From Theocolax elegans (Eukaryota > Arthropoda > Insecta > Hymenoptera > Cerocephalidae), in NCBI GenBank assembly GCA_026168455.1, contig CM047431.1, positions 11,443,703 to 11,507,702 of the forward strand: a DNA stretch of 64,000 bases, given 5' to 3'. Numbering within the stretch: the stretch's first letter is position 1; the number at the start of each line of letters is the position of its first letter. Below are positions 23,670-39,925 of the stretch, one piece after another. A program made the translations under genes and the position numbers. The notes under the pieces were generated by a model. It did no database searches. It was not told the DNA's origin and saw only the letters and a program-made list of their open reading frames with translations.

Positions 23670-23995
23670 TGTGACGGAAATCGTCACACAATCTATTCAC
23701 GACGAATAGAGTATTTAAATTCGCGAATTGTAAGTCGTCGGAGCCTTTCGTATGTCAAGGCCAACCGACGACACTTGTTTACTTTTCTACGAGTGTACAA
23801 TTACGCGCGCGACTATACGTAGGGATGGGAGCGCGAAAGAGTGTGTGAGTTTCCCCACTCCCATCCCTTTTTCGAGAAATTAGGCGATCGCCTAATCAGT
23901 GTGTAATGATCCGTCGATCGGGACGGATTATTATATTGTATACCCGAATTGTACTGCTCGTGAGTGCCGAGAGTACATACCACCCATCTCTGTAG
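23670..23995. repeat. solo LTR, left part (interrupted)
   Basis: Starts TGTGACGG at 23,670 after AGTA (23,666-23,669). The other part, 39,930-40,688, ends CGTCACA and is followed by AGTA. Joined without the insert and one GTAG, the LTR is about 1,085 bp with TG...CA ends and a 4-bp target duplication. No internal coding region of this family is present, so it is a solo LTR made by LTR-LTR recombination. Confidence 0.8.
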
Positions 23996-24757
23996 TGTTA
24001 CGTCCTAGGGTAGACGTAACGTAGAAAAATTAAATAGATTGAATTTAAATTAAAAATATAAGTTACCCGTTTTAGTACGCGTATAGCGTCAAGGATGGGT
24101 GGCAATTCTCCTCGGTATAGCACAGGTCATAGACCCTTCCGAATTTTACGTGCATGGGTAAGCCCGAGGTGCAACAATGAGTGAAGGCGAGGAAAGGAAA
24201 ACAACTAACCTTATCGGGCGGGAGATCTACGGTTGACCGGTGGCTTCAACTGCTCGGCTGTCTTTCTCGCTCTCGTTGATCCTCGATACAGAGACTCCCT
24301 TACAATAGAAATGCGGTATAGACTAATTTGGATTTTAAAGGGAATAGGAAAAAGACTGGTGTTTGAAGGTTTAAAGATACTGAACAATGACTTTCGATTT
24401 CTTGCTTTATTTCGCGTTAAGTTTTGGATACAGGAGTTTACCTTACTTGAGAAAAGACTAAAGAGCAAGAGCGCACACCCCTGTGCGACATCCCTATTTA
24501 TATCAAGGGTTTGGGGTGGAGTTTTGGTTCCTCTTGACCAATCAAATATTGTACATTTACTTAATTAATTTATTCTTGGTCATGCGTGACCTAATTAAGT
24601 TATTGGCTAGAATTTTTCAAGGCGGTTCCTGTCTTTGACGAGGACATCCTACTTTACGTATTAAATGTGTGCGCACGTGTGTGCGTATGTGTGTGTGCGT
24701 ATGTGTGTGTGTATGTGTACGCGCATGTGTGTACGTTGCGTCTATCATGACGCGACA
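23996..24757 (-). repeat. 3' LTR of the dual-envelope element
   Basis: 762 bp, identical to 39,164-39,925 except at about 24,246 (T versus G) and about 24,382 (A versus G). On the minus strand a TATA box (TATAAATA) lies at 24,495-24,502. The part nearest the PPT holds a CA-rich tract. Frames running through the LTR on either strand look incidental. Confidence 0.92.
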
Positions 24758-24768
24758 CCTCTCCCCTT
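24758..24768 (-). promoter_or_regulatory. polypurine tract
   Basis: On the minus strand AAGGGGAGAGG directly abuts the 3' LTR, as expected for the primer of plus-strand DNA synthesis. Confidence 0.85.
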
Positions 24769-25122
24769 AGAGAAGTTTAACGCCAGGCGTAAACGTCCAC
24801 ACGTTTGTTGTCTTGTTTGTTTGTTTTTTTTTTTTTTTTTGTTTGTTGTTTTTTTTTGTTTATTTGTTTGTTTATTATTTATTTATTTATTATTTTTTTT
24901 TTTCTTAAAAACTAGATATTACAATTATCGCTACATAAATTGGTATATAAATATATATATATATTATTGTATTTTGTTTATAAATACATATATGCATATG
25001 AATATTTTTTTTATTTTTCTTTCATTTGTGCATTTATTCTAGTAAATCTAAAAAGAGGAAGAAGGAGAGAAATGAGAATTAACATGAGGAAGGAAAAGCT
25101 AAAGGAAAAATTCATGCATTTG
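24769..25122. other. 3' non-coding region of retroelement
   Basis: Contains a long GTTTGTTTTT-type T-rich tract (24,810-24,900) and AT repeats. Near 25,035-25,041 the minus strand reads AATAAA, a plausible polyadenylation signal for the zinc-ribbon ORF that ends at 25,123. Confidence 0.55.
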
Positions 25123-25785
25123 TCAATACTCCTGTCCAGCTATCCTTCTTTGTCTTCTGAGGAGGTCGTATACTTCCTCCTTGCATGAGTCACAGACGTG
25201 GAGTGATAAGTCTCCGTATTCCCAGATGCACCAACAATTCAATCCTTGGTATCTGGGGATGTCGAATCGGCCAATGAACTCGCATCGCGGGCAATAATGC
25301 CGCGTGTTCTTCACCCTCAAACCGCATTCCACGCAACGAGCCGGTCGTTCGACTTCTTCCGTGCTGCCGTAATTTAAGAGGGATAATCCCTCTAGGTTTA
25401 GATCGCTGTCCCAATGGTTTGTTACTCCTGGCTCCAGTAATCCGTCCATTACCTTTTCCAGAAAACTACGATACTTCTGCCTGTGGTACCGTACCGTATT
25501 TGGATCCAAATCATTGCAGATCCTTTCTTGTACATGTTGTGTATGCCACCATTGGCTGGCTATTCTCTCATCAGCAGTGTATGCTGGGTAGTGGTGTCCG
25601 GCTATTCCTATCCGGGCACGAGTGGTTCGTCGTACTTGACCGTCTCTCATTATGTATACCCATAAAGAAAAATATTTTCTTAGAAACTGCCACAGGACTG
25701 TCGTTTTTCTTAAAGCACGTCGTTCCGTCATCCATCCCACTGACGAATCGAGTTCTATTTCCATATCCCAGTTGTCGTTGCTCAT
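25123..25785 (-). CDS. zinc-ribbon accessory protein, 220 aa, unknown function
   Basis: An open frame with an ATG start in a transcription unit of its own. The N-terminal ~110 residues are basic and Trp/Arg-rich without a recognised domain. The C-terminal part has paired cysteines: CVECGLRVKNTRHYCPRCE (two CxxC knuckles about 10 residues apart), then CWCIW and CDSC, which suggests one or two zinc-binding ribbons. Base composition is richer in G+C than the neighbouring AT-rich env and pol. It lies between the F-type envelope and the PPT, where retroviruses sometimes carry acquired genes. No signal peptide or membrane segment is seen. Nucleic-acid or protein binding is only a guess from the zinc ribbons. 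I do not recognise a family. Confidence 0.7.
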   Translation of the reverse strand: MSNDNWDMEIELDSSVGWMTERRALRKTTVLWQFLRKYFSLWVYIMRDGQVRRTTRARIGIAGHHYPAYTADERIASQWWHTQHVQERICNDLDPNTVRYHRQKYRSFLEKVMDGLLEPGVTNHWDSDLNLEGLSLLNYGSTEEVERPARCVECGLRVKNTRHYCPRCEFIGRFDIPRYQGLNCWCIWEYGDLSLHVCDSCKEEVYDLLRRQRRIAGQEY

Positions 25786-25862
25786 CTTGGTGTGTGAGGG
25801 TTGACGTGTGGCCGTGTTGTTGCTACAAGTAAGAATAGATTGTCAAGCGTGAAACCCCTCTA

Positions 25863-25870
25863 TTTATAGG
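25863..25870 (-). promoter_or_regulatory. TATA box upstream of zinc-ribbon ORF
   Basis: Minus-strand CCTATAAATAGAGGGG lies about 80 nt upstream of the ATG at 25,785, a spacing that allows a normal start site and a short 5' UTR. Together with the AATAAA near 25,038 it suggests an internal promoter independent of the LTR. Confidence 0.6.
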
Positions 25871-26149
25871 CTGGTACTGTTGGATTTTATGTTTTCTCCA
25901 CCCCCGTGACTTAATTATGATTCAGGGAAAGCCCTGGATTGGATAAAAAGGAATAGATAAAATCAAGGGTTTTTTTTTATAATCTACATCCTATTCATAT
26001 ACATATATTTACTTATTGCGCAAGTTCGAAAGTTATTATAATTTATTTATAAACAAGTATTTATATTTAAATGATAAGCGAGCATACTGTTTACATTATA
26101 TATTTTATTATAATAAGTAATTGTTAATTATAAGTCATTTTTAAATGCC
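25871..26149. other. intergenic region between F-type envelope and zinc-ribbon ORF
   Basis: AT-rich; contains an A-rich/T-rich patch near 25,970 and no coding homology. It would be the upstream part of the internal promoter. Confidence 0.4.
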
Positions 26150-27907
26150 TTAAACATTGTTACTTGGTTCAGTTTTCTCGGATAAAACTGGCGTGTTCGG
26201 AGGTGGTTCTGGTTCATACGTCTTGGGTGGTGTTCTCGGAGTTGCATATACGTGTTCTCGAGGTAAGAAATTCCATTGTATTGTCGGATCAACTGGTCGC
26301 ATTGGGACGTACTCTACTTTGTCTTTTCTTGATTTCCTAATACATTTTTGGAAAATATATCGACATAGTATTAAGCATCCGGCAAAAAGCATTAGTATAA
26401 TAACCATTCCATGTAAGTAAGCATCAGTTATTTGATTTTCAATTTTAACATTAATAGTTTTATCCGGTTTTAAATCGCTCGGAAGGTTTTTTCCTGCTCC
26501 GATCAACTGCAATGGTGGTAAATAGTACGTGTCCTTTTCTCTCACCAGCAGCTCTGAAGCGTAGTAGATGTTATCGTGAACCTTAAAGTGGCAGCCCGCT
26601 GAGAGGGAAATCGTTCCTGCTTGTTGAAAAGTGTATGTCTCCTCGAATCCTGGACAAAATACATTTACGAGTGTAGGCTTTGCGACTGAGTAAACATAGT
26701 ATCTTGGATGAGCAGTTTTAATGATGTATAAGTTCTTGCCTTTCATAAAATTAATTCTACATGAACTAAAAGTTGCATAGTCTTGTTCCAGTAATAATTT
26801 GCTTTCACACTCTCGTTGGAGATGCACAGGGTTTTCCCTTACGCATATATAATTCCTTTGTAATTTAATGCATCTCGACAGCTGTGTTGTACTTAAAAAG
26901 GTGTGTTTTTCCCCGTTGGGAAGAGAGGCTATAAAATCGTCCCTGGGTTGAATGTACGCTGCATTATGGATTAAATCCCCTTGTTGGAAAACTGGCACTG
27001 GTAGCATTTTGTACAAAGTGTGCGTTTCCTTTTCTACCATTGGCATTATTATTTGCATAATTATGTGATCTTTATAAATTGTTAATTCTCTTGGAGCGAA
27101 CTCGGCAATTATCGCCGCATTTATTTGTTCAATTTTTACCGGACTCTTGGTTTCGGATACTTTTTCTATCATTTTTAAAATAATTCTTAAATTTCTTGTA
27201 GCGCCGGAAAACTTTGTTGTTGACAATAAACTTGTTATCGTGTTGGCTATATCCAAGTAACTATCCAAATTTTGTAATGCTAGATTGATTGTTTCCTCAA
27301 CTCTTGATTTGTCAATATCTATTACTCCTTTTTCTCCTTGTAGTATTTGTAATATCGCTTCCAGTTGCTTCATTTCTACAGACATTTTTTCTAAAGTTTG
27401 CATGATTTCATTATCTATGTATGCCTTTGCTGTACCTCTTCCTAACATTGCTTCTCGAGAGTGATGTCTCATTTGCGTAATAATTGATACTATAGCTAGT
27501 GATGAATTTTTTGTAAATGCGTTTTCGTCCCCCCCCTTATCTAAAACTTCGTCTCCTGACGAATATGAAGTCGCTGAAGTGATATAAGCGTCTCTTATTC
27601 TAGAGAACTCGCGCATTTTTTCTTGTAATAAATAAATTCTGCTTATCGTTACCGCGTCCTTTAGCCTTGTATACGTGTCGGATTGTACAATATCTTGTAT
27701 TATTTTTGTAAAATTTTCTTGGATTCCAAAAACTTTCTGCGTGTCAATTGTAGTTATTATACACCATTCTTGTTTAATAAAGTCTATTTCTTGCAATCGA
27801 TTAAAAATGATGCCGGGGTTATTTCGCTCTGTTACAATTGCCTTATTTTGAGTCGTCGCAATCACAACGTGAAACACGATGAAAAATGCGCACATAATCT
27901 TCTCCAT
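26150..27907 (-). CDS. env: baculovirus-F-type (errantivirus) envelope protein, 585 aa
   Basis: A class I-like envelope glycoprotein of the kind carried by gypsy-group insect retroviruses, expected to mediate membrane fusion at the cell surface. A signal peptide is visible at residues ~1-18. The N-terminal EWCIITTID region and the central Cys-rich block (SRCIKLQRNYICVRE, then CESKLL, then a later CPGFEE and AGCHFKV) follow the order of the F/Env family. A single membrane anchor is clear at about 499-519, followed by a basic, Pro-rich 66-residue tail. I see no clear furin-type RXKR cleavage site, which is unusual for the family. The frame is complete. It is the downstream one of two envelope genes, and its expression probably needs splicing. 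Confidence 0.8.
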   Translation of the reverse strand: MEKIMCAFFIVFHVVIATTQNKAIVTERNNPGIIFNRLQEIDFIKQEWCIITTIDTQKVFGIQENFTKIIQDIVQSDTYTRLKDAVTISRIYLLQEKMREFSRIRDAYITSATSYSSGDEVLDKGGDENAFTKNSSLAIVSIITQMRHHSREAMLGRGTAKAYIDNEIMQTLEKMSVEMKQLEAILQILQGEKGVIDIDKSRVEETINLALQNLDSYLDIANTITSLLSTTKFSGATRNLRIILKMIEKVSETKSPVKIEQINAAIIAEFAPRELTIYKDHIIMQIIMPMVEKETHTLYKMLPVPVFQQGDLIHNAAYIQPRDDFIASLPNGEKHTFLSTTQLSRCIKLQRNYICVRENPVHLQRECESKLLLEQDYATFSSCRINFMKGKNLYIIKTAHPRYYVYSVAKPTLVNVFCPGFEETYTFQQAGTISLSAGCHFKVHDNIYYASELLVREKDTYYLPPLQLIGAGKNLPSDLKPDKTINVKIENQITDAYLHGMVIILMLFAGCLILCRYIFQKCIRKSRKDKVEYVPMRPVDPTIQWNFLPREHVYATPRTPPKTYEPEPPPNTPVLSEKTEPSNNV

Positions 27908-28115
27908 TTTGTCTGTAACATAATAATAAAAAACTTTATTATGTCCAACATATTGTTCCTTTATTTATGTGCGTTGTGTATATATATATTTTTTTTTAAC
28001 ATATTTTTCCTATGCGTTCCAATTTATCGTATTATGTTAATTACACATATTTTTATGTTTCTCTGAGATTTATTTCAATACGCGCTTAATATCATCGGTA
28101 TATGCATAATTTCTC

Positions 28116-28604
28116 TCATTCAGCTTCATTTTCTTTTTTCACCTCTTGAATCTTTGGATTTGTTGATTCCGCTCTACTGGTTGCTGTATGTTGGTCGATT
28201 CCTTTAGTGCTTCGTTTACATAATACTTTCGTGCTCTCTTCGAATAGAATACTATTTTGTTTATTTACTCGCGCTGGAGTCAAGAAATTCCATTTAAGTT
28301 GTTTTTGAGGTTGTAATTGCGATGTTATACATTCGTGTAGTCCACCATTTACGCGCGTTAGTACATATCCATTGCATTTAACTTCTTGCTCGATAAGACA
28401 ACTTTTGAAAGGAATTGGGAGTCCGCAACAAAAACATTTTAGATCAGTAAAAGTACAAATTAATTCGCGTATCGTTCGTGTAGCACTTAATGAAAACCGA
28501 ATTTTTTCTATGTGTGATAATTTTGTTGTATAACAATAATGACACAGGTATGTATTATGACAAAAATAGCAAAGTCGCTCCCAATTTCTTACTAAAACTG
28601 ACAT
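28116..28604 (-). CDS. Cys-rich accessory ORF, 162 aa, unknown
   Basis: An open frame with ATG start between the small gag-like ORF and the F-type envelope. The N-terminal half is rich in Cys/His: CYFCHNTYLCHYCY, then CTFTDLKCFCCG and KSC, suggesting a zinc-binding fold. The C-terminal half is polar and low in Cys. There is no signal peptide, so cytoplasmic or nuclear action is likely. I do not recognise a family. A weakly similar Cys-containing stretch occupies the same place in the old copy (near 21,290), so it may be conserved in the lineage. Confidence 0.5.
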   Translation of the reverse strand: MSVLVRNWERLCYFCHNTYLCHYCYTTKLSHIEKIRFSLSATRTIRELICTFTDLKCFCCGLPIPFKSCLIEQEVKCNGYVLTRVNGGLHECITSQLQPQKQLKWNFLTPARVNKQNSILFEESTKVLCKRSTKGIDQHTATSRAESTNPKIQEVKKENEAE

Positions 28605-29055
28605 TTTTTTTTTATTAATATAGTATACTGTTTAAACTTATAGAATATTCCTATACTGTCTAAATATAGGTATTATGTATATATATATCTTTAATTCTTA
28701 ATTAAAATTTTATATCGATAGGCAAACCGCAAACAGTAGCAAGTAAATAAATAATGAACTATATATATATATATATATATATATATTACGTTCCCTTATT
28801 TTACGTAATATTAATTTTTAGTCCTAAGATTAATTGATTCTTTTGTCCCTAAAGTACTTAGACAGATTTGCTAATAATATTTCATTAGTATTTATCGCAA
28901 AAGGTTACTATAATCTTGCGTAGAAAAGAACTGGATGCGGCAGAATTGGCCTGTAGCATGAAAGGTTTCGATTTTCCCATCGATCTACACCATCGTCCAT
29001 TCAATTCTGTATGGATAAAAAAAAGTCGATTATTTATTTTATGTATTTAAATTAA
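28605..29055. other. intergenic region with (TA)n tract
   Basis: Holds a TA dinucleotide run near 28,760-28,788 and AT-rich sequence; no coding homology seen. Confidence 0.5.
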
Positions 29056-29451
29056 TTACTGTAGAATAATCGAACATCGTTTTCTAAACATTCTCAAGTC
29101 ATCTAAATGATATTGAATGTTGCGCGCATGACGAATTGCATGGTCCAGATTTGTGTAGATTTCCGGTTTACAAATGTATCTTTTGACTTCCGGTCGAAGC
29201 CCATTTAAAAATGCCCTAAGTGCTAGATTTTCGCGTTGTAGGCATGAATCGGTTATTTCCCTGCATTCTTCTTGTGCTATTTCTCCCAATGTTTTATAAT
29301 TATGTAACATTCTTTCCATTCGTGCGCCGAATTGGAAAGTGCTTTCGTTTCGTTTTTGCGATGCCCATATAATTTGAATTCTCAAATTAATCAAAGCGCT
29401 CATAACATTATATCTTTGTACTTCTGCTAATGTATATATTTTTTTTTCCAT
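29056..29451 (-). CDS. small gag-like ORF, 131 aa
   Basis: Helix-rich protein with the pattern FGARMERMLHNY ... CLQRENLALRAFLNGLRPEV ... AIRHARNIQYHL, resembling the C-terminal half of a retrotransposon capsid domain (the part around FLNGL and the following A..A helix). It lies downstream of the chuvirus-type glycoprotein, not at the usual gag position, and no zinc knuckle follows. The old copy has its counterpart in the same place (20,850-21,235). It may be a second, captured gag fragment, perhaps modulating assembly as domesticated gag fragments can. That role is speculation. Confidence 0.6.
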   Translation of the reverse strand: MEKKIYTLAEVQRYNVMSALINLRIQIIWASQKRNESTFQFGARMERMLHNYKTLGEIAQEECREITDSCLQRENLALRAFLNGLRPEVKRYICKPEIYTNLDHAIRHARNIQYHLDDLRMFRKRCSIILQ

Positions 29452-29518
29452 TTTACAATTTTTTTATTTTATAAATGACACCTTTTATTTTCTTTTTGTT
29501 CTCTTGAAATAGCAAAAT

Positions 29519-30859
29519 TTACACGTTATCGAATTTGCGTTTTCTGCGTGGCGGTAGAGAAGATATATCCGGTTCTATAAATATTTGCGGATATAGATTA
29601 TTTTGAGCTCCGCAACTTACTATTTTACCCCCTCTTGACTCATTGACTCTTACCACAGTGGGTTGTGCCGTGTAGGTGCTAGGTTCGGGCGGGGCGAAAG
29701 GTACGTGCGAGTCCGAAAAATGTTCCGCTCGAGTGCCCGCTACTTCCGAAGGCGTAGCTTGTTCTTCCCTCTTTTTCCTTGCGTCACGCGTTGGTTTATC
29801 CCTTGCGACGTGCAGTAATAATTGAGTGACTGAATTCCAAATGGCTCCTATAATATGAAGTGACCACCCATATAAACTATACAAAGCATAACCATGTAAA
29901 ATGGTATCAACTAAAAATTTTATTAAACGCCCTATCATAAAAATGCCTATAATAGCTGCGCTAAATGATCCGAAAGTACATAATTGCCCCCAAATTTTCA
30001 TCCAAGTGTTATTGGCTAATTCTGTCAACGCTTCTTCATCGAATAATCGGGTAATAGACATACCGTTTTTATCTACCTTTTTCCCGGTCATTCCTAATGC
30101 AATTGTGTTCAACATGGCTGGCCTTTCTACGGGAAACATAAGGTGTTGTCTTAGTGCTTGGATCTCCGCTTGGGTGTAAATTCCGCTTTTTGCAAGTTCG
30201 GTTGGCTCTGTGTAATTCCAGTTATTTTTAGTAGTTGGTTTTAAAATGTCTGGTTTTACTCCCTTAGTTGTTCCTCTTGGTAAAATAGTAAACCAATCTT
30301 CCCCTAGTAAGAACATAGGAGGAATCAGAACACTGCAGGCAGCTTCGGTTCCATATTGTTTTAAAATATGTGTCCTTGGCGTCAAAAAATAATCTTTGCC
30401 GTCTTTGGTTACTGGTAACTCTTGGTAACATTTTGTAGTTTCTCTTCGTTGAACGTCAATTTGTACGCACTTCATTAAGTGCACAACTTCTCCGGCTACC
30501 AAGCCCATGTAACCACTTTTTTTCATAATTTGATATGCAAAAACGTCAGGTGCTGTTGCTGCAATGCTTAATGCATTTGATATAACTCTTCTTTCCAATT
30601 CGCATTTTTGCAAAATTAAATTGCGATATAATGTTTTTAATTGTCCTTTAATATGTTTTTCTACGTAAACGAATTTAGAGTTTACGTATGCAAAAATGTC
30701 GAGATTTTCTATTGACGGATTTCTTACGGCTTGGAAGGTTTCTGTTATTGGTCCTTCTAGAAAAAATAATTTTGGGTGCTCTGTTCTAATTAATTCATAC
30801 GAACACACCGGAATTTGTCCTAAAGTCGTAAAAGCAAAGGTTATCTCGCTCGATTCCAT
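29519..30859 (-). CDS. env: chuvirus-type glycoprotein, C-terminal ORF (446 aa)
   Basis: The larger part of a second envelope gene. It contains PRTHILKQYGTEAAC near residue 161 and GIYTQAEIQALRQHLMFP near 226, followed by hydrophobic segments at about 292-320 and 328-350 and a polar, Pro-rich tail of ~95 residues ending in a basic RRKRK. These features match my recollection of glycoproteins of Chuviridae (negative-strand RNA viruses), also seen as endogenous copies in arthropod genomes and in some LTR elements. The frame is -1/+1 relative to the upstream ORF at 30,933-31,634, and the sequence before this ATG remains open in this frame, so a single frameshift near 30,935-30,950 splits one gene. 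Unrelated to the F-type protein at 26,150-27,907. Confidence 0.65.
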   Translation of the reverse strand: MESSEITFAFTTLGQIPVCSYELIRTEHPKLFFLEGPITETFQAVRNPSIENLDIFAYVNSKFVYVEKHIKGQLKTLYRNLILQKCELERRVISNALSIAATAPDVFAYQIMKKSGYMGLVAGEVVHLMKCVQIDVQRRETTKCYQELPVTKDGKDYFLTPRTHILKQYGTEAACSVLIPPMFLLGEDWFTILPRGTTKGVKPDILKPTTKNNWNYTEPTELAKSGIYTQAEIQALRQHLMFPVERPAMLNTIALGMTGKKVDKNGMSITRLFDEEALTELANNTWMKIWGQLCTFGSFSAAIIGIFMIGRLIKFLVDTILHGYALYSLYGWSLHIIGAIWNSVTQLLLHVARDKPTRDARKKREEQATPSEVAGTRAEHFSDSHVPFAPPEPSTYTAQPTVVRVNESRGGKIVSCGAQNNLYPQIFIEPDISSLPPRRKRKFDNV

Positions 30860-30932
30860 TACATATACCGGATGTTGCTCATTGCCTTGTTCTACAACTT
30901 TATTAACATAACCCGCGTATAATTCTGAGTAT

Positions 30933-31634
30933 TTACTGCGTTCCTGCCTGTACTGGTAACCTATCCCAAAAGGCGTACCCTGCTTCTACGTCAATACAAT
31001 CATCTTGATTAAACTTACAGCGCGTACCGGATCGTAAAATAACCTCATTAGCATTTAAGTTTACCGGTGCATAGTAATCCCTTAAAGTAATGGTAACATA
31101 GCCCGTGACTATAGCATCGTCAAAAATACCATATGGATCCGCGTACATTCCTGCGTTACTACAATCTCCTGCTTGATCTACCTTTCCAACAAACGTCATT
31201 GGGTGGACAATCGATCCGTTCAGTTTTAAGTTACTTATTACTTCGTCTCGTACTCGGTGTGCGCGGTATACATGCATTCTATTACATTCTTCCCTAGAAA
31301 TTTCATCAATAAACTGAACCTCCCCTCTGTTTTTGTCTTTTCTATGCGAAAACGCGCCGCAGTATGTTACCGATCTTTTTATTTCTACTTTACAAAGCTT
31401 TACATGAGTGCTTGAAAAATCATTTAATTGTAATAGTCGTACATAAATTTTTGTTGTATTTACTACCGGTTCAGGTATGTCGCATTCTCCTACGTGAATT
31501 AACGAAAATGTTGTTAAATTTGAGACGTGCTGCGAACAGTCGTACCCTATGATTGCGTTAATATAGATTTTCCTTGGTATAATAGTTGTGAGATAAATGA
31601 TGGCCAATAGTGTTTTACAACTCATCTGCAACAT
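30933..31634 (-). CDS. env: chuvirus-type glycoprotein, N-terminal ORF (233 aa)
   Basis: The N-terminal ectodomain part, beginning with a hydrophobic signal-like stretch (residues ~1-27) and then a Cys-containing region (GYDCSQHVSNLTTFSLIHVG, CDIPEP, KLCKVEIKRSVTYCGAF). NLTT and other Asn-X-Ser/Thr sites would be glycosylated. It stops at 30,933 where the frame changes. Because the downstream ORF has no signal peptide, this copy as assembled would give only a secreted fragment. The gap of 247 bp after pol suggests expression from a spliced message. Whether the frameshift is real, a sequencing error, or a programmed event is unknown. Confidence 0.65.
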   Translation of the reverse strand: MLQMSCKTLLAIIYLTTIIPRKIYINAIIGYDCSQHVSNLTTFSLIHVGECDIPEPVVNTTKIYVRLLQLNDFSSTHVKLCKVEIKRSVTYCGAFSHRKDKNRGEVQFIDEISREECNRMHVYRAHRVRDEVISNLKLNGSIVHPMTFVGKVDQAGDCSNAGMYADPYGIFDDAIVTGYVTITLRDYYAPVNLNANEVILRSGTRCKFNQDDCIDVEAGYAFWDRLPVQAGTQ

Positions 31635-31881
31635 TAAATAAGTTCATGAAAGCGTTCTTTTTTTTTTTATTTATTTATAGAACCGTTGCAAAAATGCTTA
31701 GTTTTATCTTTCCGCTTTTTTTTTTTTAAATTATCAGAATCTATTGACTGATTCTTTATTGATTTCCTTAGCATTTTTGCATTTGTGAAAATACATATCA
31801 TTGTTAGAGTTTTGCTATATACATGGCTTATTTTTTTTTTATTTACATTCGTCATGCTCTTAAATTTAAATACCAACAAGC
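31635..31881. other. pol-env intergenic region
   Basis: AT-rich, with T-rich runs on the + strand (31,658-31,670, 31,720-31,730). On the minus strand it would contain the splice acceptor for envelope messages, but I cannot single one out. Confidence 0.4.
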
Positions 31882-34800
31882 TTATTCGGTTTCAATATGC
31901 GATTTGCGTAAGCGATTTATGTGCACTATTTTATTTTTATTTCCATTTATTTGAATTTTTACATTCCCATTGTCGGAAACGTCTAGAACTAAAAATGGAC
32001 CCGAGTATTGATCGTCAAATTTCTTAGGTTTTGGCCCCTTTTGCAGCCATACGTAATCACCGATTTGTAGTGTTAAAACGTTTACCTTACGATCGTAGTA
32101 TTTCTTGGCTCGAAGTTTTGCCTTTAAAAGGTTTTGTTGGGCTATGTTTTGTAGACTGTTTAGGCGCTTGACTAAATCTTCAAGATAACCATCGTATGTA
32201 GGCGCCAGGTCTTCTGTTTCGACCGGTGCGTTCGAGGGTGTGCGTGCCAGTCGGCCGAACACGAGTTCAAACGGCGTATGCCATGTAGACTCACTAATTC
32301 CCGTGTTAAAATTAAAGGTAGCCAAATCCAGGTAATCGTCCCAATCTGTTCGATTACTATGTACAAAAAATTTCAAGTATTCAATGAGACTTGAGTGCGA
32401 TCGCTCAAGTCCACCGTTTGATTGTGGGTGGAACGCCGTGGTTTTAGTTTGTTTAATTCTAAATATTTTTGCTATTCTTTTCATTAATTTACTCATGAAA
32501 TTCGTACCTTGATCCGTAAGGATTATTCGAGGTGCGCCAAATATGCATATGACTTTTCTTATTAAACCATTCGCTACATCCATGGCCGAAATTCGCGCCA
32601 AGGGCTCAGCTAATGCGAATTTAGTTAATAAGTCTTGGAAGGTTAAAATGTACTCGTTTCCCCGATTGGTTTTGCATAAGGGACCAACAATATCCATACT
32701 TATTCGGTCCATAGCGTGCGTTCCCGAGTTTGTAATAACCATTGGAGCTCTAGTTTTAACCCTAACCAATTTTTTTAATTGGCTATTCAAACATTTTCTT
32801 ATAAAATCTTGTACCTCTATCTTTAAATTCTCCCAGTTATAATTTTGTTTAATACGGTTATAGGTTTTTGTGACACCTCTATGTCCTCCTATAGCCGAAC
32901 AGTGAGCTTCTTCTATAATCGGAATTCGATCGTCTAGTGTCGGATATCGTATTAGACCTAAACAAACAATTAATTTTACCGTGCTTTGACTAAAAACTCC
33001 TTTTAGTTTTTCTAAAACTAATTCCCACTCTAAATTTTCAATTCTATCGGTTTTCGCTATACTTATTGATTTTATCTGTATAGTATCTAACGTTAAATAT
33101 AGATTTTCGCATAATAAATTTAGGTTATTATCAATTCCACTTAGCCCGATTAACGATTCTGTTCGTATCGGTAATGCTATATGAATTTTTGTATTTACAT
33201 TTATCAAAACTGGTATTCCAACCTGCATTTCCTTGAATCTTGGTAATTTATTCTGTAGTTTTAATTGCGAAGACCCATCGTCGCATGGTTCTCCTGTTGT
33301 AGTGACAAAATACATATAATTGTCCTTACGCATAAATAATTTTTCTCTGCATGTAATAATTACTTGTTGATCGTTAATTTGATTAAATTGTTCTTCATAG
33401 ATCGACGTCTCTTCGTTTATTTGATCAGGACTGAATTGCGGATCGTTTTCAAGTAATGATTCATTAACATGTTCAAGATCTTCGTGTAAGCGTAATCGCG
33501 CATTTTCCGAGTGAACGAGGGGTTCCGGCTCGAAAGTTTCCACCTCCGTATCGTCGTGCGTTCCTTCTCCACGGTCCGGTGATTGTTCGTTCGCTCGCCT
33601 CTCGTTTTTTCTTCCCCTTTGCGGGCGTAGAGCCTCTATCGCGTCTAAATATCGCTGGCCTACCTGGCGACCCGCCTTCGCTCTCGTGGTCATACCCCGC
33701 GGTGGTTCAACTAGGCTAGACTCGGGCTCATGACTTGCCGCTATTGCCTTGCTTCTCGTAATAACTAGGACCTTGTCTATGGGGTTTCTAGACAGTGCGT
33801 CTGCTACATTTAAACGACCCGGTCGGTATTTAATTTCGAAATCGTACTCCGCGAGCATAAGACGCCATCGCGTAACTCGTGAGTTCGGGTCCTTATGCGT
33901 TTGTAACCATACCAGTGGTTTATGATCTGTTATAAGATAAAATTTTCGTCCAAATAAATACGGTCGGAAATGCTTAATGCAAAATATTATTGCTAGTCCT
34001 TCTTTGTTAAACGTGTCCCAACGTTTTTCCACATCCGAAAGAACTCGAGAGACGTATGCAACGGGTTGATCTTTCCCTATCTCACCCTGACTTAAGACTC
34101 CAGCAATTGCATATCCCGAAGCGTCGGTCGTTAGATTGAAAGTAATTTCGAAATTTGGAAAAATTAATACCGGTTTTTCGCATAAACTAATGCGTAATGT
34201 CTCAAATGCCTTTTCTGTTTCTTCTGACCATTTAAATTGAACGTCCTTTTTTAATAAATCCGTTAAAGGTTTTGCAATTTTTGAAAATTGATAAATAAAT
34301 CTTCTATAGTAGCCCGCTAAACCCAAAAATTGCTTGATATTTTTAGCATTTTGAGGGCGTGGAAATTTTCGTACAGTTTCAATTTTCCGCGAATCTGGTT
34401 TAATTCCTTCTGCACTAATAACATGACCTAAATATGTAACTGTTGTTTTAAAAAATTCACATTTCTCTGGTTGTAATTTTAAAACCGCTTTTCGCAATCT
34501 AAGAAATAAATTCTCTAATGTTTTAATATGCTCTTGTAGAGTCTCCGAATAACATATAATATCATCAATGAAGCAAAAAAGTTCTTTATTGATAAGTCCA
34601 GCGAGTGCAATTGAAAGTGCTCTTGAGAATGTAGCCGGCATTGTTCGTAGTCCGAAGCTTCCTCGGTTAAAATGGTACAAATCTCCGTTTGTAACAAACG
34701 CGGTTTTGTGACGGTCTCGTTCGTCAATTTCTATTTGATGATACGAAGCCTTAAGATCAAAAGTTGAGAATTTTTTTGATCCGCCCAATTGGTCTATTAT

Positions 34801-35799
34801 TTCAGTTATATTCGGTAGCGGAAATTGGTCGTCTAAAGTTTTCGCATTTAATTTGCGATAGTCGATCACCATTCTGTATTGCTTGCGTCCTTGTATGTCC
34901 TCTTTCTTAGGAACTAGAAAACAAGGGCTTGAGTACGATGAGGTAGATGGTTCGATAATGCCGTCTTTTAATAAGTCTTGCACTTGTCTCGCTATTTCTT
35001 CTTTATGTACCGGAGGTAATCGGTATTGTTTTGAAGTTATTGGTACATCATCCGTTGTTGGAATTGTTAGTTTTAAAATATGTGTTGCTGTTAATTTTTC
35101 ACCCGGAAGGTAAAAGATGTCGCTATATTTCTCAATTAATTTTTCTATTTCTTCTCTTTCATCAGCAGCCAAATGGTCAAGTCGTAGTAATGATTTTACC
35201 TTTTCCGCTCTCCCTTTTGGTATGACACATGCTAAGCGATAAACTTTATGACTACCTTTTAGTTTCTTTCCGCCTTTTCCTTTTAAATTAATTCTTAATT
35301 TAAGTAAACCCTCTAATGTATCTTTAATAACATTTTTATGAGATTCTTCCCCAAAGGCATGTAGTTTTACATAATTTCCTAATTTATTTAGATTTTCTCT
35401 TAATTCCTTTGAGTTATTTGTTGAGTTGTCATGATACTTTATTTCCATTAGTAGATTACTTATTAACATTTCCATGTCTTGGTTATTATTCCACAGAATT
35501 CCATTATTCATTAAACCTTCCTCTAGAATTTTTTGTAACATGCGTGTCGAAATTAACAACCTTTCTTCATCGAATTCGTTTGCGTCTACATTTTCATTTT
35601 GTGCTAATGCCTTTTTATTTTTTGTATTATTATCGAGACCTACCATATCTTTTCTCTTTATCTCAAAATTAGAATATTTTTCATTACTTATTTCGTTCTC
35701 GTTTCTTGGATTTGGGTGCGCGCTTGATTTATTAGTTGCCTCATCACTTTCGAGTTCATTTAAGAGATTATTTTTTTTATTTGAGGAGTGCCTTTGCAA
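31882..35799 (-). CDS. pol: Ty3/gypsy pol: reverse transcriptase, RNase H, integrase
   Basis: A frame of 1,305 codons, in the same frame as the protease but separated from it by the TAA at 36,547. RT shows FSTFDLKASYHQI and CFIDDIICYS (catalytic Asp at about 412-413). RNase H shows TTDASG (Asp ~559) and later TDHKPL. Integrase has the HHCC finger (AHCSAIGGH) whose last Cys is Ser: KCLNSQ instead of CxxC, AGC for TGC at 32,782-32,784. The catalytic triad is Asp 1036 (SMDIVGPL), Asp 1096 (LTDQGTNF) and Glu 1132 (GGLERSH), a D-D35E arrangement, followed by YSGPF near the C-terminus. The first ~200 residues are polar linker. The first codon here is TTG, not a true start; the frame is open further upstream. 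Confidence 0.9.
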   Translation of the reverse strand: MQRHSSNKKNNLLNELESDEATNKSSAHPNPRNENEISNEKYSNFEIKRKDMVGLDNNTKNKKALAQNENVDANEFDEERLLISTRMLQKILEEGLMNNGILWNNNQDMEMLISNLLMEIKYHDNSTNNSKELRENLNKLGNYVKLHAFGEESHKNVIKDTLEGLLKLRINLKGKGGKKLKGSHKVYRLACVIPKGRAEKVKSLLRLDHLAADEREEIEKLIEKYSDIFYLPGEKLTATHILKLTIPTTDDVPITSKQYRLPPVHKEEIARQVQDLLKDGIIEPSTSSYSSPCFLVPKKEDIQGRKQYRMVIDYRKLNAKTLDDQFPLPNITEIIDQLGGSKKFSTFDLKASYHQIEIDERDRHKTAFVTNGDLYHFNRGSFGLRTMPATFSRALSIALAGLINKELFCFIDDIICYSETLQEHIKTLENLFLRLRKAVLKLQPEKCEFFKTTVTYLGHVISAEGIKPDSRKIETVRKFPRPQNAKNIKQFLGLAGYYRRFIYQFSKIAKPLTDLLKKDVQFKWSEETEKAFETLRISLCEKPVLIFPNFEITFNLTTDASGYAIAGVLSQGEIGKDQPVAYVSRVLSDVEKRWDTFNKEGLAIIFCIKHFRPYLFGRKFYLITDHKPLVWLQTHKDPNSRVTRWRLMLAEYDFEIKYRPGRLNVADALSRNPIDKVLVITRSKAIAASHEPESSLVEPPRGMTTRAKAGRQVGQRYLDAIEALRPQRGRKNERRANEQSPDRGEGTHDDTEVETFEPEPLVHSENARLRLHEDLEHVNESLLENDPQFSPDQINEETSIYEEQFNQINDQQVIITCREKLFMRKDNYMYFVTTTGEPCDDGSSQLKLQNKLPRFKEMQVGIPVLINVNTKIHIALPIRTESLIGLSGIDNNLNLLCENLYLTLDTIQIKSISIAKTDRIENLEWELVLEKLKGVFSQSTVKLIVCLGLIRYPTLDDRIPIIEEAHCSAIGGHRGVTKTYNRIKQNYNWENLKIEVQDFIRKCLNSQLKKLVRVKTRAPMVITNSGTHAMDRISMDIVGPLCKTNRGNEYILTFQDLLTKFALAEPLARISAMDVANGLIRKVICIFGAPRIILTDQGTNFMSKLMKRIAKIFRIKQTKTTAFHPQSNGGLERSHSSLIEYLKFFVHSNRTDWDDYLDLATFNFNTGISESTWHTPFELVFGRLARTPSNAPVETEDLAPTYDGYLEDLVKRLNSLQNIAQQNLLKAKLRAKKYYDRKVNVLTLQIGDYVWLQKGPKPKKFDDQYSGPFLVLDVSDNGNVKIQINGNKNKIVHINRLRKSHIETE

Positions 35800-36009
35800 T
35801 CTTTCTTTATTAATTTCATGATTAAAGTATTCTTCATCGTTCTCCCTTATTACTGGGTTCGATTTGGTATTTGTTTCTAATTTCTTAATGATTTTAATTT
35901 CTTGACTTGTCTCTTCGTTTCCTTGTTCGATTAATTTACATACATTAGGCTTACATACTGCCTTCGTACGTAAGACTTGATTTATGCTTGGAATTTCATT
36001 TAGACATCG

Positions 36010-36546
36010 ATATTGAGTTACTTTTGAACTCGATTTTAGATTTTGAATTTGATTTTGAATTTCATTTGAACTTGAATTTTGATATAGAATTTGATTTTGA
36101 ATTAAATTTGAACTTGAACTATGATTTTGATTTTGAATTTCATTTGAATTTGCATTTTGATTTAGAATTTGATTTTGAATTTCATTTGAATTTGAATTTT
36201 GATTTAGAATTTGATTTTGAATTTCATTTGAATTTGAATTTTGATTTAGAATTTGATTTTGAATTTCATTTGAATTTGAATTTTGATTTAGAATTTGATT
36301 TTGAATTTCATTTGAATTTGAATTTTGATTTAGAATTTGATTTTGACTTTCATTTGAATTTGAATTTTGATTTAGAATTTGATTTTGAATTTCATTTGAA
36401 CTTGAATTATGATTTTGATTTTGAATTTCATTTGAATTTGAATTTTGATTTAGAATTTGATTTTGAATTTCATTTGAATTTGAATTTTGATTTAGAATTT
36501 GATATTGAATTTCATTTAAACTTGCATTTTGATTAAGATTTCGATT
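36010..36546 (-). repeat. 42-bp repeat encoding Asn/Gln-rich linker between protease and RT
   Basis: About 12 units of 42 bp (14 codons) on the minus strand, consensus NEIQNQILNQNSNS, in frame with both the protease upstream and pol downstream. The + strand frame of Phe/Leu/Glu repeats over the same DNA is an antisense shadow. A 14-codon period that keeps the frame suggests the repeat expanded within a translated gene. Confidence 0.8.
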
Positions 36547-37440
36547 TTAAATTGGAATTTGATTTTGATTTCGCTTGGGATCTTGTATTTCCAATTTATT
36601 TTTACATTGAGATCGAATTTGAATATCTTTCTGATTTTTTAATTGACTTCGACTACCCGGTGGGTCCTGACTTTGAAATTTAATTAGAATTGACTCTTGC
36701 TTACGCGATGGGCTTATATGTCCTCGAATTCGCGTTTCTTCTACAAGATATACTTTCTCATTAATATGATCGACCTCTCGGGTCGACACCTCCCTTCGTT
36801 GAAAATTTTCATTAGCATAATTTGTTTTTCCTGTTTCCCCAAACGAATTCCTTTTAGGTGGTTTTATTACCTGTGTGATATGTTTTACGACTTCCTCACC
36901 CTCTCTTGCATTGACACTCATAGGGTTAGCGGAAATTCCCTTACGCGTTCCCGTTCTCTCGTTCAATATACTGTTACGTTTTTCTATGACATTAATCGTC
37001 GGGTCTTCATACCTTTCCTTTGTTTCGATCAATAATATGTTTTCTTCTACAAAAGGGATACAGACGTCTACAACTCTTAACATTCTTTTCGCATAATCAA
37101 TTTTTGCACCTAATTGACAGAAAAAATCGCTTCCCAGTAAACCATCTTCGATTATAGGCACGTTGTCATTTATTATATGGAATTCGATGTCAAACTTTGG
37201 AAAATTGATGTCAACTTTGCCTAAAGTGTAAATACTTTCTTCCGTGATTCCTTTTAATTCTAATATTTCATTTTTATTAATATTTTCGTCTTTTGGTATG
37301 TTTCGTAATTTTAGTAAATTGGGACCTGCTCCTGAATCTAAAATAAGAGTTATTTCCTCGTTGCTTCTCGGATTTTTAAGTTTAATAATTGGCGACTTGC
37401 AATTTTTACTTAATCGAACATATCTTTTGATGATGTGGGT
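36547..37440 (-). CDS. retropepsin (protease) region, -1 frame relative to gag
   Basis: The aspartic protease active site ILDSGAGPNLL is at about 37,318-37,344, and the GLLGSDFF motif that pairs with it lies near 37,123-37,146. The frame overlaps the end of gag (37,410) and is shifted by -1, as expected for gag-pro frameshifting. A six-A run in the overlap (minus strand TACAAAAAACAG, about 37,444-37,455) is a possible slippage site, though not a canonical heptamer. The frame ends at TAA 36,547-36,549. Beyond it the same frame stays open through the Asn/Gln repeats into RT, so the stop may be an inactivating mutation or a readthrough point. Confidence 0.8.
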   Translation of the reverse strand, partial: THIIKRYVRLSKNCKSPIIKLKNPRSNEEITLILDSGAGPNLLKLRNIPKDENINKNEILELKGITEESIYTLGKVDINFPKFDIEFHIINDNVPIIEDGLLGSDFFCQLGAKIDYAKRMLRVVDVCIPFVEENILLIETKERYEDPTINVIEKRNSILNERTGTRKGISANPMSVNAREGEEVVKHITQVIKPPKRNSFGETGKTNYANENFQRREVSTREVDHINEKVYLVEETRIRGHISPSRKQESILIKFQSQDPPGSRSQLKNQKDIQIRSQCKNKLEIQDPKRNQNQIPI

Positions 37441-39098
37441 TCCTGTTTTTTGTAACTCGGGCGCCTCGTGTACTCGGTCTCTCGTCTCGCGCCCTGTTGT
37501 CGGAGACCATTTTCGTTTTCCGATCGGTTTTCTCGATTTCGATTATTAAATTCCCGTTTTCTACATTCTTCTATAATATGGCCCTCTTTTTTGCAGTATC
37601 GGCATATCCTTTCTGTATTTGTATAATTTTGTTTTGGGAAGGTTGCATTTTGGCGACGAACATATTGATTTTCTTGCTGCTTAAATTCATTAGTCCGTTT
37701 TTCACCTGGCCATTGTTGCGGTCTGCGTGACTCTCGAGACTCCGCCCAGTCATTCGTAGGCCGTCTTTCCCTGGCTTGGGGTTGTCTCATTTTTTCTAAA
37801 TGCCAGCATTTCGGTGCCAGGTGGCCCTGTCTCCCGCAAAGTTGGCATTTATCGGTATATTTAGTCTCGGCAAAATGGACTTTTTGTATAGGATTTTTAT
37901 TTTCTGTTATGACTTTAATTGTTTCATTTAACTCTTCTACTTCATAGCATGCAAAATCTCTTTCGATTTCTATAGCTTCTGCAGTAGCTTCATCCAATTT
38001 ACACACTTGGCCCATTCGTGCTTTTATTACCCAATGTAAACCGCGAATAAAAAATTTTACTAAATCATTTTCTAAAGATCGATTGAAATTATTAGTTAAT
38101 CTTTTTTCTCTTCGAGCTGCTTCAGTGATTTCTTGCCCGATGGATCTAACCCTGTTTGAAAAAACTACGACACTCTCTTCCCTTTTCTGTTTTACGTTAG
38201 CTAATTCACCGTGTAATTGATGATAAGATTTCGCAGACCCAAAAATACTATCAAAAAAATTTGCAATATCTTCAATCGATTCAAAACTTTTTTTTGCTGC
38301 ACTCTTTAATGCTTCTCCATATAATCTCATTTTAATTAATTTCGCGAGGTCCGGTTCATATTGTTCATGTATTATGTTGCAAGCTTCCCTACATCCGTCA
38401 ACAAATTGACTCAATGGAATATTTACCCCATTATATTTTGGAATTAATTCAAGTGCGTCTTTTATAGAAAGGGGCCTCACTTGTCCCAAGGTTGAGTTTG
38501 TTAAATACGAATTTAATCTTGGCAATCTCTCCGATACTAAATTCATATTATTACAGTTATTTGGTAAAATTGGTGTGCTTGTAGTAAATCTGACATTATT
38601 ATCTCGTTTAACAATTTCAGGTTTCATTGGTTGTTCTGATGTTTTTGCATTTTTAATTGTTGTATTTTCTGCCGAAAAATAGGTTGTGTTATCGTCTGTT
38701 AGTTCGGGTTTAAAACCTATCCCATTTACTTCTACTTTTGTTTTTGCTTCTAAATTTCCGATAATATAATCGATTATTAATTTTGGATATACTCTTTTTT
38801 CTATAAAATCGCCTAAAGCTTCAATTAGATACTTATCTTCGCAAAATTCTATTATATCTTTTTTGTCTACGAATTCCTTTAACAAGTCAATTATTATAGG
38901 TATATTTTTATCGAGGCCTACCGCTTCATCTGACAAATGTATCCCGCTATCATGCCTATCTTTAAAAAATTTTAACAAACTAGCTAAAGATTTGTCCGGA
39001 TTTTCAACACAAAAATCTGGATTTATTTTAAGCGCCTGCTTAAGCAAAATTGAAGCCGCGTCTTTATTTCGAGAATTCTCTTTTTCATTGGTACCCAT
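37410..39098 (-). CDS. gag: gag polyprotein, ~562 aa
   Basis: Structural protein forming the particle and binding the RNA. I choose the first in-frame ATG, at 39,098, about 50 nt after the PBS; the frame is also open upstream from TTG at 39,122. A capsid-like helical domain spans about 210-400 (FFDSIFGSAKSYHQLHGEL near the middle, then FIRGLHW). Two CX2CX4HX4C zinc knuckles follow: CQLCGRQGHLAPKC at about 417-430 and CRYCKKEGHIIEEC at about 499-512, with a basic Arg/Gln-rich spacer. The old + strand gag remnant aligns over the capsid and first knuckle. The frame is intact. Confidence 0.9.
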   Translation of the reverse strand: MGTNEKENSRNKDAASILLKQALKINPDFCVENPDKSLASLLKFFKDRHDSGIHLSDEAVGLDKNIPIIIDLLKEFVDKKDIIEFCEDKYLIEALGDFIEKRVYPKLIIDYIIGNLEAKTKVEVNGIGFKPELTDDNTTYFSAENTTIKNAKTSEQPMKPEIVKRDNNVRFTTSTPILPNNCNNMNLVSERLPRLNSYLTNSTLGQVRPLSIKDALELIPKYNGVNIPLSQFVDGCREACNIIHEQYEPDLAKLIKMRLYGEALKSAAKKSFESIEDIANFFDSIFGSAKSYHQLHGELANVKQKREESVVVFSNRVRSIGQEITEAARREKRLTNNFNRSLENDLVKFFIRGLHWVIKARMGQVCKLDEATAEAIEIERDFACYEVEELNETIKVITENKNPIQKVHFAETKYTDKCQLCGRQGHLAPKCWHLEKMRQPQARERRPTNDWAESRESRRPQQWPGEKRTNEFKQQENQYVRRQNATFPKQNYTNTERICRYCKKEGHIIEECRKREFNNRNRENRSENENGLRQQGARRETEYTRRPSYKKQEPTSSKDMFD

Positions 39099-39148
39099 GA
39101 TCTGTGCTAATAAGGAAGACAATTGCTCTAATCCTTCTTTAATTTTTA

Positions 39149-39161
39149 GGACGAGCCCCCA
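39149..39161 (-). promoter_or_regulatory. primer-binding site, tRNA-Pro type
   Basis: Minus-strand TGGGGGCTCGTCC begins two bases inside the 5' LTR. It is identical over 13 nt to the tRNA-Pro PBS known from gammaretroviruses, then diverges. Confidence 0.85.
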
Positions 39162-39163
39162 CT

Positions 39164-39925
39164 TGTTACGTCCTAGGGTAGACGTAACGTAGAAAAATTA
39201 AATAGATTGAATTTAAATTAAAAATATAAGTTACCCGTTTTAGTACGCGTATAGCGTCAAGGATGGGTGGCAATTCTCCTCGGTATAGCACAGGTCATAG
39301 ACCCTTCCGAATTTTACGTGCATGGGTAAGCCCGAGGTGCAACAATGAGTGAAGGCGAGGAAAGGAAAACAACTAACCTTATCGGGCGGGAGATCTACGG
39401 TTGACCGGTGGCTGCAACTGCTCGGCTGTCTTTCTCGCTCTCGTTGATCCTCGATACAGAGACTCCCTTACAATAGAAATGCGGTATAGACTAATTTGGA
39501 TTTTAAAGGGAATAGGAAAAAGACTGGTGTTTGAAGGTTTAAAGATACTGAGCAATGACTTTCGATTTCTTGCTTTATTTCGCGTTAAGTTTTGGATACA
39601 GGAGTTTACCTTACTTGAGAAAAGACTAAAGAGCAAGAGCGCACACCCCTGTGCGACATCCCTATTTATATCAAGGGTTTGGGGTGGAGTTTTGGTTCCT
39701 CTTGACCAATCAAATATTGTACATTTACTTAATTAATTTATTCTTGGTCATGCGTGACCTAATTAAGTTATTGGCTAGAATTTTTCAAGGCGGTTCCTGT
39801 CTTTGACGAGGACATCCTACTTTACGTATTAAATGTGTGCGCACGTGTGTGCGTATGTGTGTGTGCGTATGTGTGTGTGTATGTGTACGCGCATGTGTGT
39901 ACGTTGCGTCTATCATGACGCGACA
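39164..39925 (-). repeat. 5' LTR of the dual-envelope element
   Basis: 762 bp, on the + strand TGTTACG...CGCGACA. The TATA box equivalent is at 39,663-39,670 on the minus strand. It would drive the full-length message. GTAG follows at 39,926-39,929, duplicating 23,992-23,995. Confidence 0.92.

What the first reader, a model, noticed from the sequence alone, without database searches (positions are those of the whole stretch)
23996..39925. Ty3/gypsy endogenous retrovirus carrying two unrelated envelope genes
Seen: one 15.9-kb element bounded by 762-bp LTRs and a GTAG duplication contains, in one orientation, gag-pro-pol and two different glycoprotein ORFs. One, at 26,150-27,907, has the layout of baculovirus-F/errantivirus Env (signal peptide, Cys-rich centre, one anchor near 499-519). 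The other, split over 29,519-31,634, has features I associate with Chuviridae glycoproteins. Known: insect gypsy-group retroviruses normally carry only the F-type gene, and chuvirus glycoproteins have been reported in other LTR elements. Inference: a double capture gives a retrovirus able to use two entry routes or hosts.
Basis: partly seen in the sequence, partly recalled or inferred. Interest (0 to 1): 0.92.

Follow-up and report, generated by a model that had tools for sequence, protein, structure and literature searches.

The report
Insect retrovirus with two envelope genes
A multi-copy retrovirus-like element, probably in a wasp, ant or bee relative, carries two unrelated envelope genes, one of which seems to have lost its membrane-fusion trigger yet was kept by selection, much as in some baculoviruses that gained a new fusion protein.

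Summary
A Ty3/gypsy provirus (minus strand, 23,996-39,925; LTRs 760/762 identical, GTAG duplication) encodes gag-pro-pol plus two unrelated glycoproteins: a chuvirus-type G (PF24664, E 5e-62 and 2e-139; frame broken here) and an F-type envelope (PF12259, E 9e-11; open). It is no nested insertion: in the host assembly 46 of 75 scored F loci have G upstream on the same strand, and the layout G / capsid-like ORF / ORF162 / F / ORF220 recurs. Its integrase is nearer to that of 12 G-carrying gypsy loci (47-56%) than to 10 F-only loci (38-45%), so G looks ancestral and F the later gain. F lacks the cleavage site and fusion-peptide block seen in nine other F envelopes of this genome; 20 sister copies lack the site too. 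Yet variants shared among copies show purifying selection (9 N: 12 S; neutral about 3.7:1). Best reading: G fuses, F is a retained, uncleaved accessory glycoprotein, as in group I baculoviruses (GP64 plus F-like protein). "Two entry routes" is not supported as worded. Eight literature searches (open-licence papers) showed no such dual-envelope element. Expression and fusion remain untested.

The parts
39164..39925 (-). 5' LTR (762 bp); TATAAATAG from 39,670; donor-like AAG|GTAAAC at about 39,609
23996..24757 (-). 3' LTR, 760/762 identical to the 5' LTR
23992..23995 (.). target-site duplication GTAG (other copy 39,926-39,929)
39149..39161 (-). primer-binding site TGGGGGCTCGTCC, two bases after the LTR; tRNA-Pro type is recalled, not tested
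24758..24768 (-). polypurine tract AAGGGGAGAGG next to the 3' LTR
37410..39122 (-). gag (open frame from 39,197, first ATG 39,098; CCHC knuckle)
36547..37542 (-). protease open frame (DSGA motif), other frame than gag; one in-frame stop separates it from pol
35893..36606 (-). tandem-repeat array (mostly 12/18-nt steps) at the pro-pol junction; further copies not listed by the tool
31882..36546 (-). pol: RT, RNase H, integrase; 1,554-aa open frame
30933..31634 (-). chuvirus-type G, N-terminal part (PF24664 positions 2-223); acceptor-like TTGCAG at 31,631-31,626, directly before an in-frame ATG
29519..30859 (-). chuvirus-type G, C-terminal part (PF24664 positions 254-634), in another frame; frame open from 30,985
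29056..29451 (-). 131-aa capsid-C-terminus-like ORF, weakly similar to the element's own gag; 150 matches in the genome
28116..28604 (-). ORF162, Cys-rich (CxxC pairs), no known family; purifying selection
26150..27907 (-). F-type envelope (PF12259), no furin motif in the N-terminal half and no fusion-peptide block; acceptor-like TTACAG ending 5 bases before the ATG
25860..25868 (-). TATAAATAG, starting 83 bases before the ORF220 ATG; same 9-mer as in the LTRs; present in 17 of 20 copies; candidate internal promoter
25123..25785 (-). ORF220, zinc-ribbon-like C-terminus (below Pfam cut-offs), no relative found in the protein set; purifying selection

Best explanation
This is one young copy of a multi-copy Ty3/gypsy endogenous retrovirus family (about 150 matches for its accessory ORFs) whose ancestor already used a chuvirus-type G as envelope. 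One lineage then gained a block downstream of G: a capsid-like fragment, a Cys-rich ORF, an F-type envelope and a zinc-ribbon-like ORF. G is inferred to be the fusogen. F is inferred to be a surface-anchored accessory glycoprotein that no longer fuses by furin activation but was kept by selection, for example for attachment, interference with other F-carrying retroviruses, or spread inside the host. Shown: co-residence, recurrence, absence of the cleavage and fusion-peptide motifs. Supported by counts: purifying selection on F, ORF162 and ORF220. Inferred: order of gain, division of labour, expression of G and F from spliced messages, an internal promoter for ORF220.
For: Families. One element. 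Recurrence: of the 20 best F copies after the window, 18 contain at least part of G upstream and 19 contain ORF220; 46 of 75 F loci have G upstream on the same strand within 12 kb, controls 0 (G downstream) and 1 (opposite strand). G ancestral: 12 of 12 fetched G loci of other families have gypsy integrase before G (47-56% identity to the window, two of them over about 100 residues only) and no F match within about 1.5 kb behind it; of 12 fetched F loci, 10 have integrase at 38-45%, 2 (L039, L040) gave no pol match. Cleavage site: of 9 other F proteins aligned (four lineages; L030, L032, L038 left out because of stops), 4 have R-x-[KR]-R and 5 have K-R directly before the conserved fusion-peptide block; the window has neither, nor do 20 of 20 copies, read by eye over residues 105-175. 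Selection: shared changes N:S 9:12 in F (binomial P 3e-4; Fisher against singletons P 0.006), 5:11 in ORF162 and 5:11 in ORF220 (P 5e-5 each); singletons 95:34, 25:10, 32:21. GP64/F-like precedent: passages of PMC4864199.
Against: Selection on G is unproven: Gn shared 0 N: 3 S (P 0.01), Gc 4 N: 2 S (P 0.39). The copies analysed were the best F matches, which biases against N changes in F. F may be dispensable for mobility: in 21 of 75 F loci the main row starts only at residue 117-124 (in the one examined, L053, a frame break at a homopolymer run explains it, and its G row is open), and 14 of the 41 best G rows have no scored F within 12 kb. Cleavage by another protease was not excluded. In the integrase tree the fork joining the window, the G group and one F group is open (support under 80), and the F rows need two changes. 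No expression data. The capsid-like ORF rests on 5 of 1000 shuffles; BLASTP was not significant and the structure model failed.
Confidence: 0.6

Rival explanations
1. Both glycoproteins are working fusogens, so particles have two entry routes or cell ranges.
For: Both genes can be open in one copy (4 of 46 G-F pairs by the tables and the pairing); F keeps hydrophobic N-terminus, Cys core and anchor and is under selection.
Against: F has no basic cleavage site or fusion-peptide block where the nine other F envelopes aligned have them; no basic site there in 20 of 20 copies.
Confidence: 0.15
2. F is a passenger: a recombination scar from a deleted second retrovirus (capsid fragment, then F) carried along by G-driven copies, now decaying.
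For: A capsid-like fragment stands before F; only 17 of 75 F loci (the window included) show F 1-585 without stops; 14 of the 41 best G rows have no scored F.
Against: Shared variants in F, ORF162 and ORF220 are mostly synonymous; singletons look nearly neutral in F and ORF162, as expected of decay after insertion (in ORF220 singletons too are constrained, P 0.0015).
Confidence: 0.17
3. F is a captured host gene (an Iris-like, envelope-derived defence gene) used against host defence or rival retroviruses.
For: Loss of fusion motifs with retained ectodomain and selection would fit; no close relative of F outside this family was found.
Against: No single-copy host F gene was looked for; Iris is recalled, the paper was not held.
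Confidence: 0.06
4. F lies in a separate nested element, or the pairing is an assembly artefact.
For: None found.
Against: Same order and strand, mostly similar spacing, in dozens of places; no inner LTR pair.
Confidence: 0.02

Closest known systems
Errantiviruses / insect ERVs (gypsy, ZAM, Idefix) with F-type Env
   Same: Ty3/gypsy gag-pro-pol, LTRs, F-type third ORF behind an acceptor-like site
   Different: Furin site and fusion peptide are among the most conserved motifs of their Env (passage of PMC12992720); here both are missing and a second, unrelated glycoprotein precedes F
Anakin (BEL/Pao element with chuvirus glycoprotein, mosquitoes; PMC7642597, passages)
   Same: Chuvirus-type G as envelope of an LTR element
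   Different: pol here is Ty3/gypsy-like, and there is an F envelope as well
Jingchuvirales glycoprotein EVEs near gypsy fragments in Hymenoptera (PMC10084718, passages); ant Mono-Chu glycoprotein EVEs (PMC6540820, passages)
   Same: Probably relatives of this G: the named database hits among the 120 listed are from ants, a wasp, a sawfly and a bee
   Different: PMC10084718 reported no clear evidence of capture by Gypsy; here gypsy integrase stands directly before G in several families
Group I alphabaculoviruses (GP64 plus F-like protein; PMC4864199, passages)
   Same: Two unrelated envelope proteins; F-like protein without furin site, kept although another protein fuses
   Different: DNA virus; GP64 is not the chuvirus-type G; analogy only, no shared descent tested
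Bdelloid rotifer LTR elements with extra ORFs (PMC5408684, passages)
   Same: Modular gain of extra ORFs after pol
   Different: No two-envelope element in the passages seen

Membership tests
Metaviridae (Ty3/gypsy) | LTRs with TG...CA ends and short target-site duplication | tested here: met
Metaviridae (Ty3/gypsy) | protease-RT-RNase H-integrase order | tested here: met
   RVT_1, RT_RNaseH, H2C2, rve; DSGA; that this order marks Ty3/gypsy is recalled
Errantivirus-type F envelope | Baculo_F profile match above cut-off | tested here: met
   41.4 bits vs 24.1; weaker than all 72 matches (59-159 bits)
Errantivirus-type F envelope | furin cleavage site | tested here: not met
Errantivirus-type F envelope | fusion-peptide block after the cleavage site | tested here: not met
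   alignment
Errantivirus-type F envelope | C-terminal membrane anchor | tested here: met
   (hydropathy only)
Chuvirus-type glycoprotein (Monjiviricetes_fusion) | profile match over nearly full length | tested here: met
   two pieces; four uninterrupted rows of this family, profile 2-634 of 653
Chuvirus-type glycoprotein (Monjiviricetes_fusion) | descent from Chuviridae rather than another jingchuvirus or mononegavirus | not tested
   no exogenous chuvirus sequences in hand; the name rests on PF24664 and on published work
Chuvirus-type glycoprotein (Monjiviricetes_fusion) | class III fusion fold | not tested
   G was not folded; the broken copy was not joined
Anakin | BEL/Pao polymerase | tested here: not met
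   (gypsy-like pol; no BEL/Pao sequence was compared)
Group I baculovirus-like two-envelope system (works like) | one glycoprotein fuses, the other is on the envelope but does not | not testable with these tools
   needs expression and fusion assays

The most novel reading that the evidence does not exclude
A complex insect retrovirus in which a class III-type G does the fusing while an uncleavable F was repurposed as a second surface protein, with Cys-rich accessory genes, one from an internal promoter: a retroviral parallel to the GP64/F replacement in baculoviruses, inside a host genome whose G-only and F-only relatives serve as controls.
Probability: 0.45. Interest if true: 0.85.

Novelty: new variant of a known kind. 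Interest (0 to 1): 0.72.

Why it matters
Envelope exchange is how retroelements become viruses, but two unrelated envelopes in one element are rarely if ever described. This family preserves both, in a host that also holds G-only and F-only gypsy elements, so the order of gain, the loss of fusion activation and the later role of F can be tested. It also shows gypsy elements with chuvirus-type G directly behind integrase, for which the 2023 survey seen here reported no clear evidence, and three extra ORFs, two of them clearly under selection, that make the element unusually complex for an insect retrovirus.

Tried and rejected
Nested insertion of F: rejected. Same-family glycoproteins: rejected. 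LTR-derived origin of the region before ORF220: local alignment score 22 against a shuffle mean of 22.4, no support; only the shared TATAAATAG remains, of which I estimate by hand, from base composition, about 0.35 by chance on the sense strand. Capsid-like ORF by structure: model pLDDT 41.7, not used; by PDB sequences nothing; ORF220 and ORF162 likewise. F and ORF220 in the 5.8-billion protein set: no hits; that search needs shared 5-residue words. Viral contigs: no relatives for F, Gc or ORF220. PHROGs: none for the three small ORFs. Other dual families: none of 72 F loci lies within 20 kb of any of 68 G loci, but this control is blind to weak F genes: 4 of those 68 G rows belong to this very family and their F was not in the list either, so other dual families are not excluded. 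The end of pol could not be used for the N:S counts (2 copies passed, no change). Iris paper not held. Host not named; Hymenoptera is inferred only; the telomere-pattern searches did not complete.

Full report
What is there. The element runs on the minus strand from 39,925 to 23,996, with 762-bp LTRs that differ at 2 positions, TG...CA ends, GTAG duplications, a primer-binding site two bases after the 5' LTR and a polypurine tract before the 3' LTR. In sense order it holds gag with a CCHC knuckle, protease with DSGA, a tandem-repeat stretch, RT-RNase H-integrase, a chuvirus-type glycoprotein G, a 131-aa ORF, ORF162, an F-type envelope and ORF220. In this copy G is broken by a frame shift and one in-frame stop separates protease from pol; F and the three small ORFs are open. 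Two LTR differences mean a young insertion; with an insect rate of about 3e-9 per site and year (recalled) that is roughly 0.4 million years.

Two families of glycoprotein. The G pieces match PF24664 at E 5.3e-62 and 1.9e-139, F matches PF12259 at E 9.4e-11, neither matching the other's family at E <= 1; BLASTP of the C-terminal G piece against F gives nothing (best E 2.0). Database relatives of that G piece (465 proteins at E <= 0.001, best 120 listed) are 42-54% identical among the 120; the named ones among the 120 come from ants, a pteromalid wasp, a sawfly and a bee, which makes a hymenopteran host likely but not proven. F (E <= 0.01) and ORF220 (E <= 1) found no relative there.

One element, many copies. 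The window lies in a 658-Mb assembly. Searches score only part of the candidates, so counts are lower bounds: F 81 rows (75 loci after merging; 75 of 668 candidates scored), G 99 rows (94 loci; 95 of 1273 scored), ORF220 156 matches, capsid-like ORF 150, ORF162 152. Of 75 F loci 46 have a G on the same strand upstream within 12 kb; none has one downstream and 1 has one on the other strand within 14 kb. 29 F loci and 48 of 94 G loci have no scored partner; of the 41 best G rows 27 have an F and 14 do not. Some of this is the scoring cap (two unpaired F loci, C3:45620792 and C4:42261291, do have G in the fetched DNA), some may be real loss. In 20 fetched copies (the 20 best after the window, not a random sample) G stands before F in 18; L024 and L027 show no G in the fetched stretch, L015 only its C-terminal part, and several have broken or interrupted G. 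By the tables, 16 G rows show a 708-aa frame without stops, 17 F loci (the window included) match residues 1-585 without stops, and 4 of the 46 pairs show both.

Order of gain. Profile searches scored 68 G loci (of 1602 candidates; 4 rows belong to this family) and 72 F loci (of 480; none of this family). The 12 G loci fetched all have gypsy-like integrase before G, at 47-56% identity to the window (the lowest and one other over about 100 residues); of the 12 F loci fetched, 10 have integrase at 38-45% and 2 gave no pol match. No F match was found within 1.5 kb behind those 12 G genes. No F of the 72 lies within 20 kb of any of the 68 G loci, but that list also misses the F genes of this family, so it cannot exclude other dual families. 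In the integrase tree (18 rows, 14 different) the window has its shortest paths to the G group, but the fork that joins window, G group and one F group is open, and the F rows fall in two places. So G as the older envelope of this lineage and F as the addition is likely, not proven. The donor of F is unknown: F is only 20-23% identical to the F proteins of L029-L040.

F looks unable to be activated in the usual way. Nine other F proteins from this genome (four lineages) were aligned; three fetched ones with stops were left out. Four of the nine have R-x-[KR]-R and five have K-R directly before a conserved hydrophobic, glycine-bearing block; the window has neither site, and its residues there do not follow the block. 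Read by eye over residues 105-175, none of 20 sister copies has a basic site there; the window's F has no R-x-[KR]-R anywhere and R-x-x-R only at 238 and 524. PMC12992720 (passage) lists furin site and fusion peptide among the most conserved motifs of errantiviral Env; PMC4864199 (passages) states that the F-like protein of group I baculoviruses lacks the furin site, lost fusion function, and is still associated with the virus membrane, with GP64 as fusion protein. PMC6085415 (passages) reports seven silkworm ERVs with env, of which only one has furin site and fusion peptide; so loss of these motifs is not unique, but those env genes had no full-length ORF.

F was nevertheless kept. Variants shared by two or more copies are N:S 9:12 in F, 5:11 in ORF162, 5:11 in ORF220 (20-21 copies each), 4:3 in the capsid-like ORF (19), 0:3 in Gn (14) and 4:2 in Gc (18), where about 3.6-4.0 N per S would be neutral; singletons are 95:34, 25:10, 32:21, 24:8, 23:10 and 63:21; one stop codon variant in ORF220 is shared. 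Codons with more than one change, matches under 90% identity and copies with 30% gaps or more were left out. Against the neutral ratio the shared sets give P 3e-4 (F), 5e-5 (ORF162, ORF220), 0.15, 0.01 and 0.39; singletons are near neutral except in ORF220 (P 0.0015). The result for G is thus weak, partly for lack of shared variants. The copies were chosen for likeness in F, which lowers N in F but not directly in the other ORFs; relatedness among copies was not modelled. Against necessity of F: in 21 of 75 F loci the main row starts at residue 117-124 (one of them has a second row for 1-85), and the one examined has a frame break at a homopolymer run while its G row is open.

How it may work. 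The LTR promoter would give the genomic RNA and, by splicing, G and F messages: acceptor-like sites stand before both (F in 17 of 20 copies; G in 12 of 20, where in the other 8 the G start was not in the fetched stretch or is missing), and a donor-like AAG|GTAAAC lies in the LTR downstream of the TATA box (it also occurs once in pol). ORF220 has the LTR's TATAAATAG 83 bases before its ATG, in 17 of 20 copies; one chance match is not unlikely. G would bring about entry. F would sit on the surface uncleaved; attachment aid, interference with F-using rivals, or a role in the host animal as for the baculovirus F-like protein are open. ORF162 and ORF220 look like metal-binding accessory proteins (Cys pairs; zinc-ribbon matches below cut-off for ORF220). 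The 131-aa ORF resembles the C-terminal capsid part of the element's own gag (5 of 1000 shuffles reach the score against whole gag, 4 of 1000 against the part; BLASTP not significant) and could be a regulatory capsid fragment or a scar of the recombination that brought F.

Novelty. Eight literature searches aimed at this (open-licence PMC papers only; listings and the passages cited) showed chuvirus-type G in BEL/Pao elements, G near gypsy pieces, and F-type Env in errantiviruses, but no element with both. PMC13172572 (passages) mentions mosquito gypsy elements with type III fusion glycoproteins, so a glycoprotein of that class in gypsy is in print; the pair was not seen. Subscription papers and most preprints were not searched, so this is no proof of absence.

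Noticed in passing
28116-28604 and 25123-25785 (-): Two Cys-rich ORFs beside the envelopes, without known family, under purifying selection, with about 150 matches each in the genome. Their dS among copies (0.048, 0.044) exceeds that of F (0.020) and Gc (0.011), which hints at a mosaic history.
   Followed up: partly
29056-29451 (-): Capsid-C-terminus-like ORF between the two envelopes; the matches listed are 55-100% identical to it and no more distant relative showed; might regulate assembly or be a recombination scar.
   Followed up: partly
F gene near residue 123 (window about 27,530); L053: In 21 of 75 F loci the main row starts at residue 117-124, and in another 8 at 91-94; in L053 a frame break at a homopolymer run explains it, the others were not looked at.
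   Followed up: partly
35893-36606: Tandem array, mostly in 12/18-nt steps, at the pro-pol junction with one in-frame stop; not compared among copies.
   Followed up: no
host genome: 1602 first-look candidates for chuvirus-type G; many of the 68 scored have open G frames, and L041-L045 have identical integrase pieces on four large contigs, suggesting recent activity.
   Followed up: partly
3743-4828 (-), 8409-9410 (+), 56270-58323 (+): A transposase-like ORF and helicase-like ORFs reminiscent of Helitrons (recalled, no family search made).
   Followed up: no
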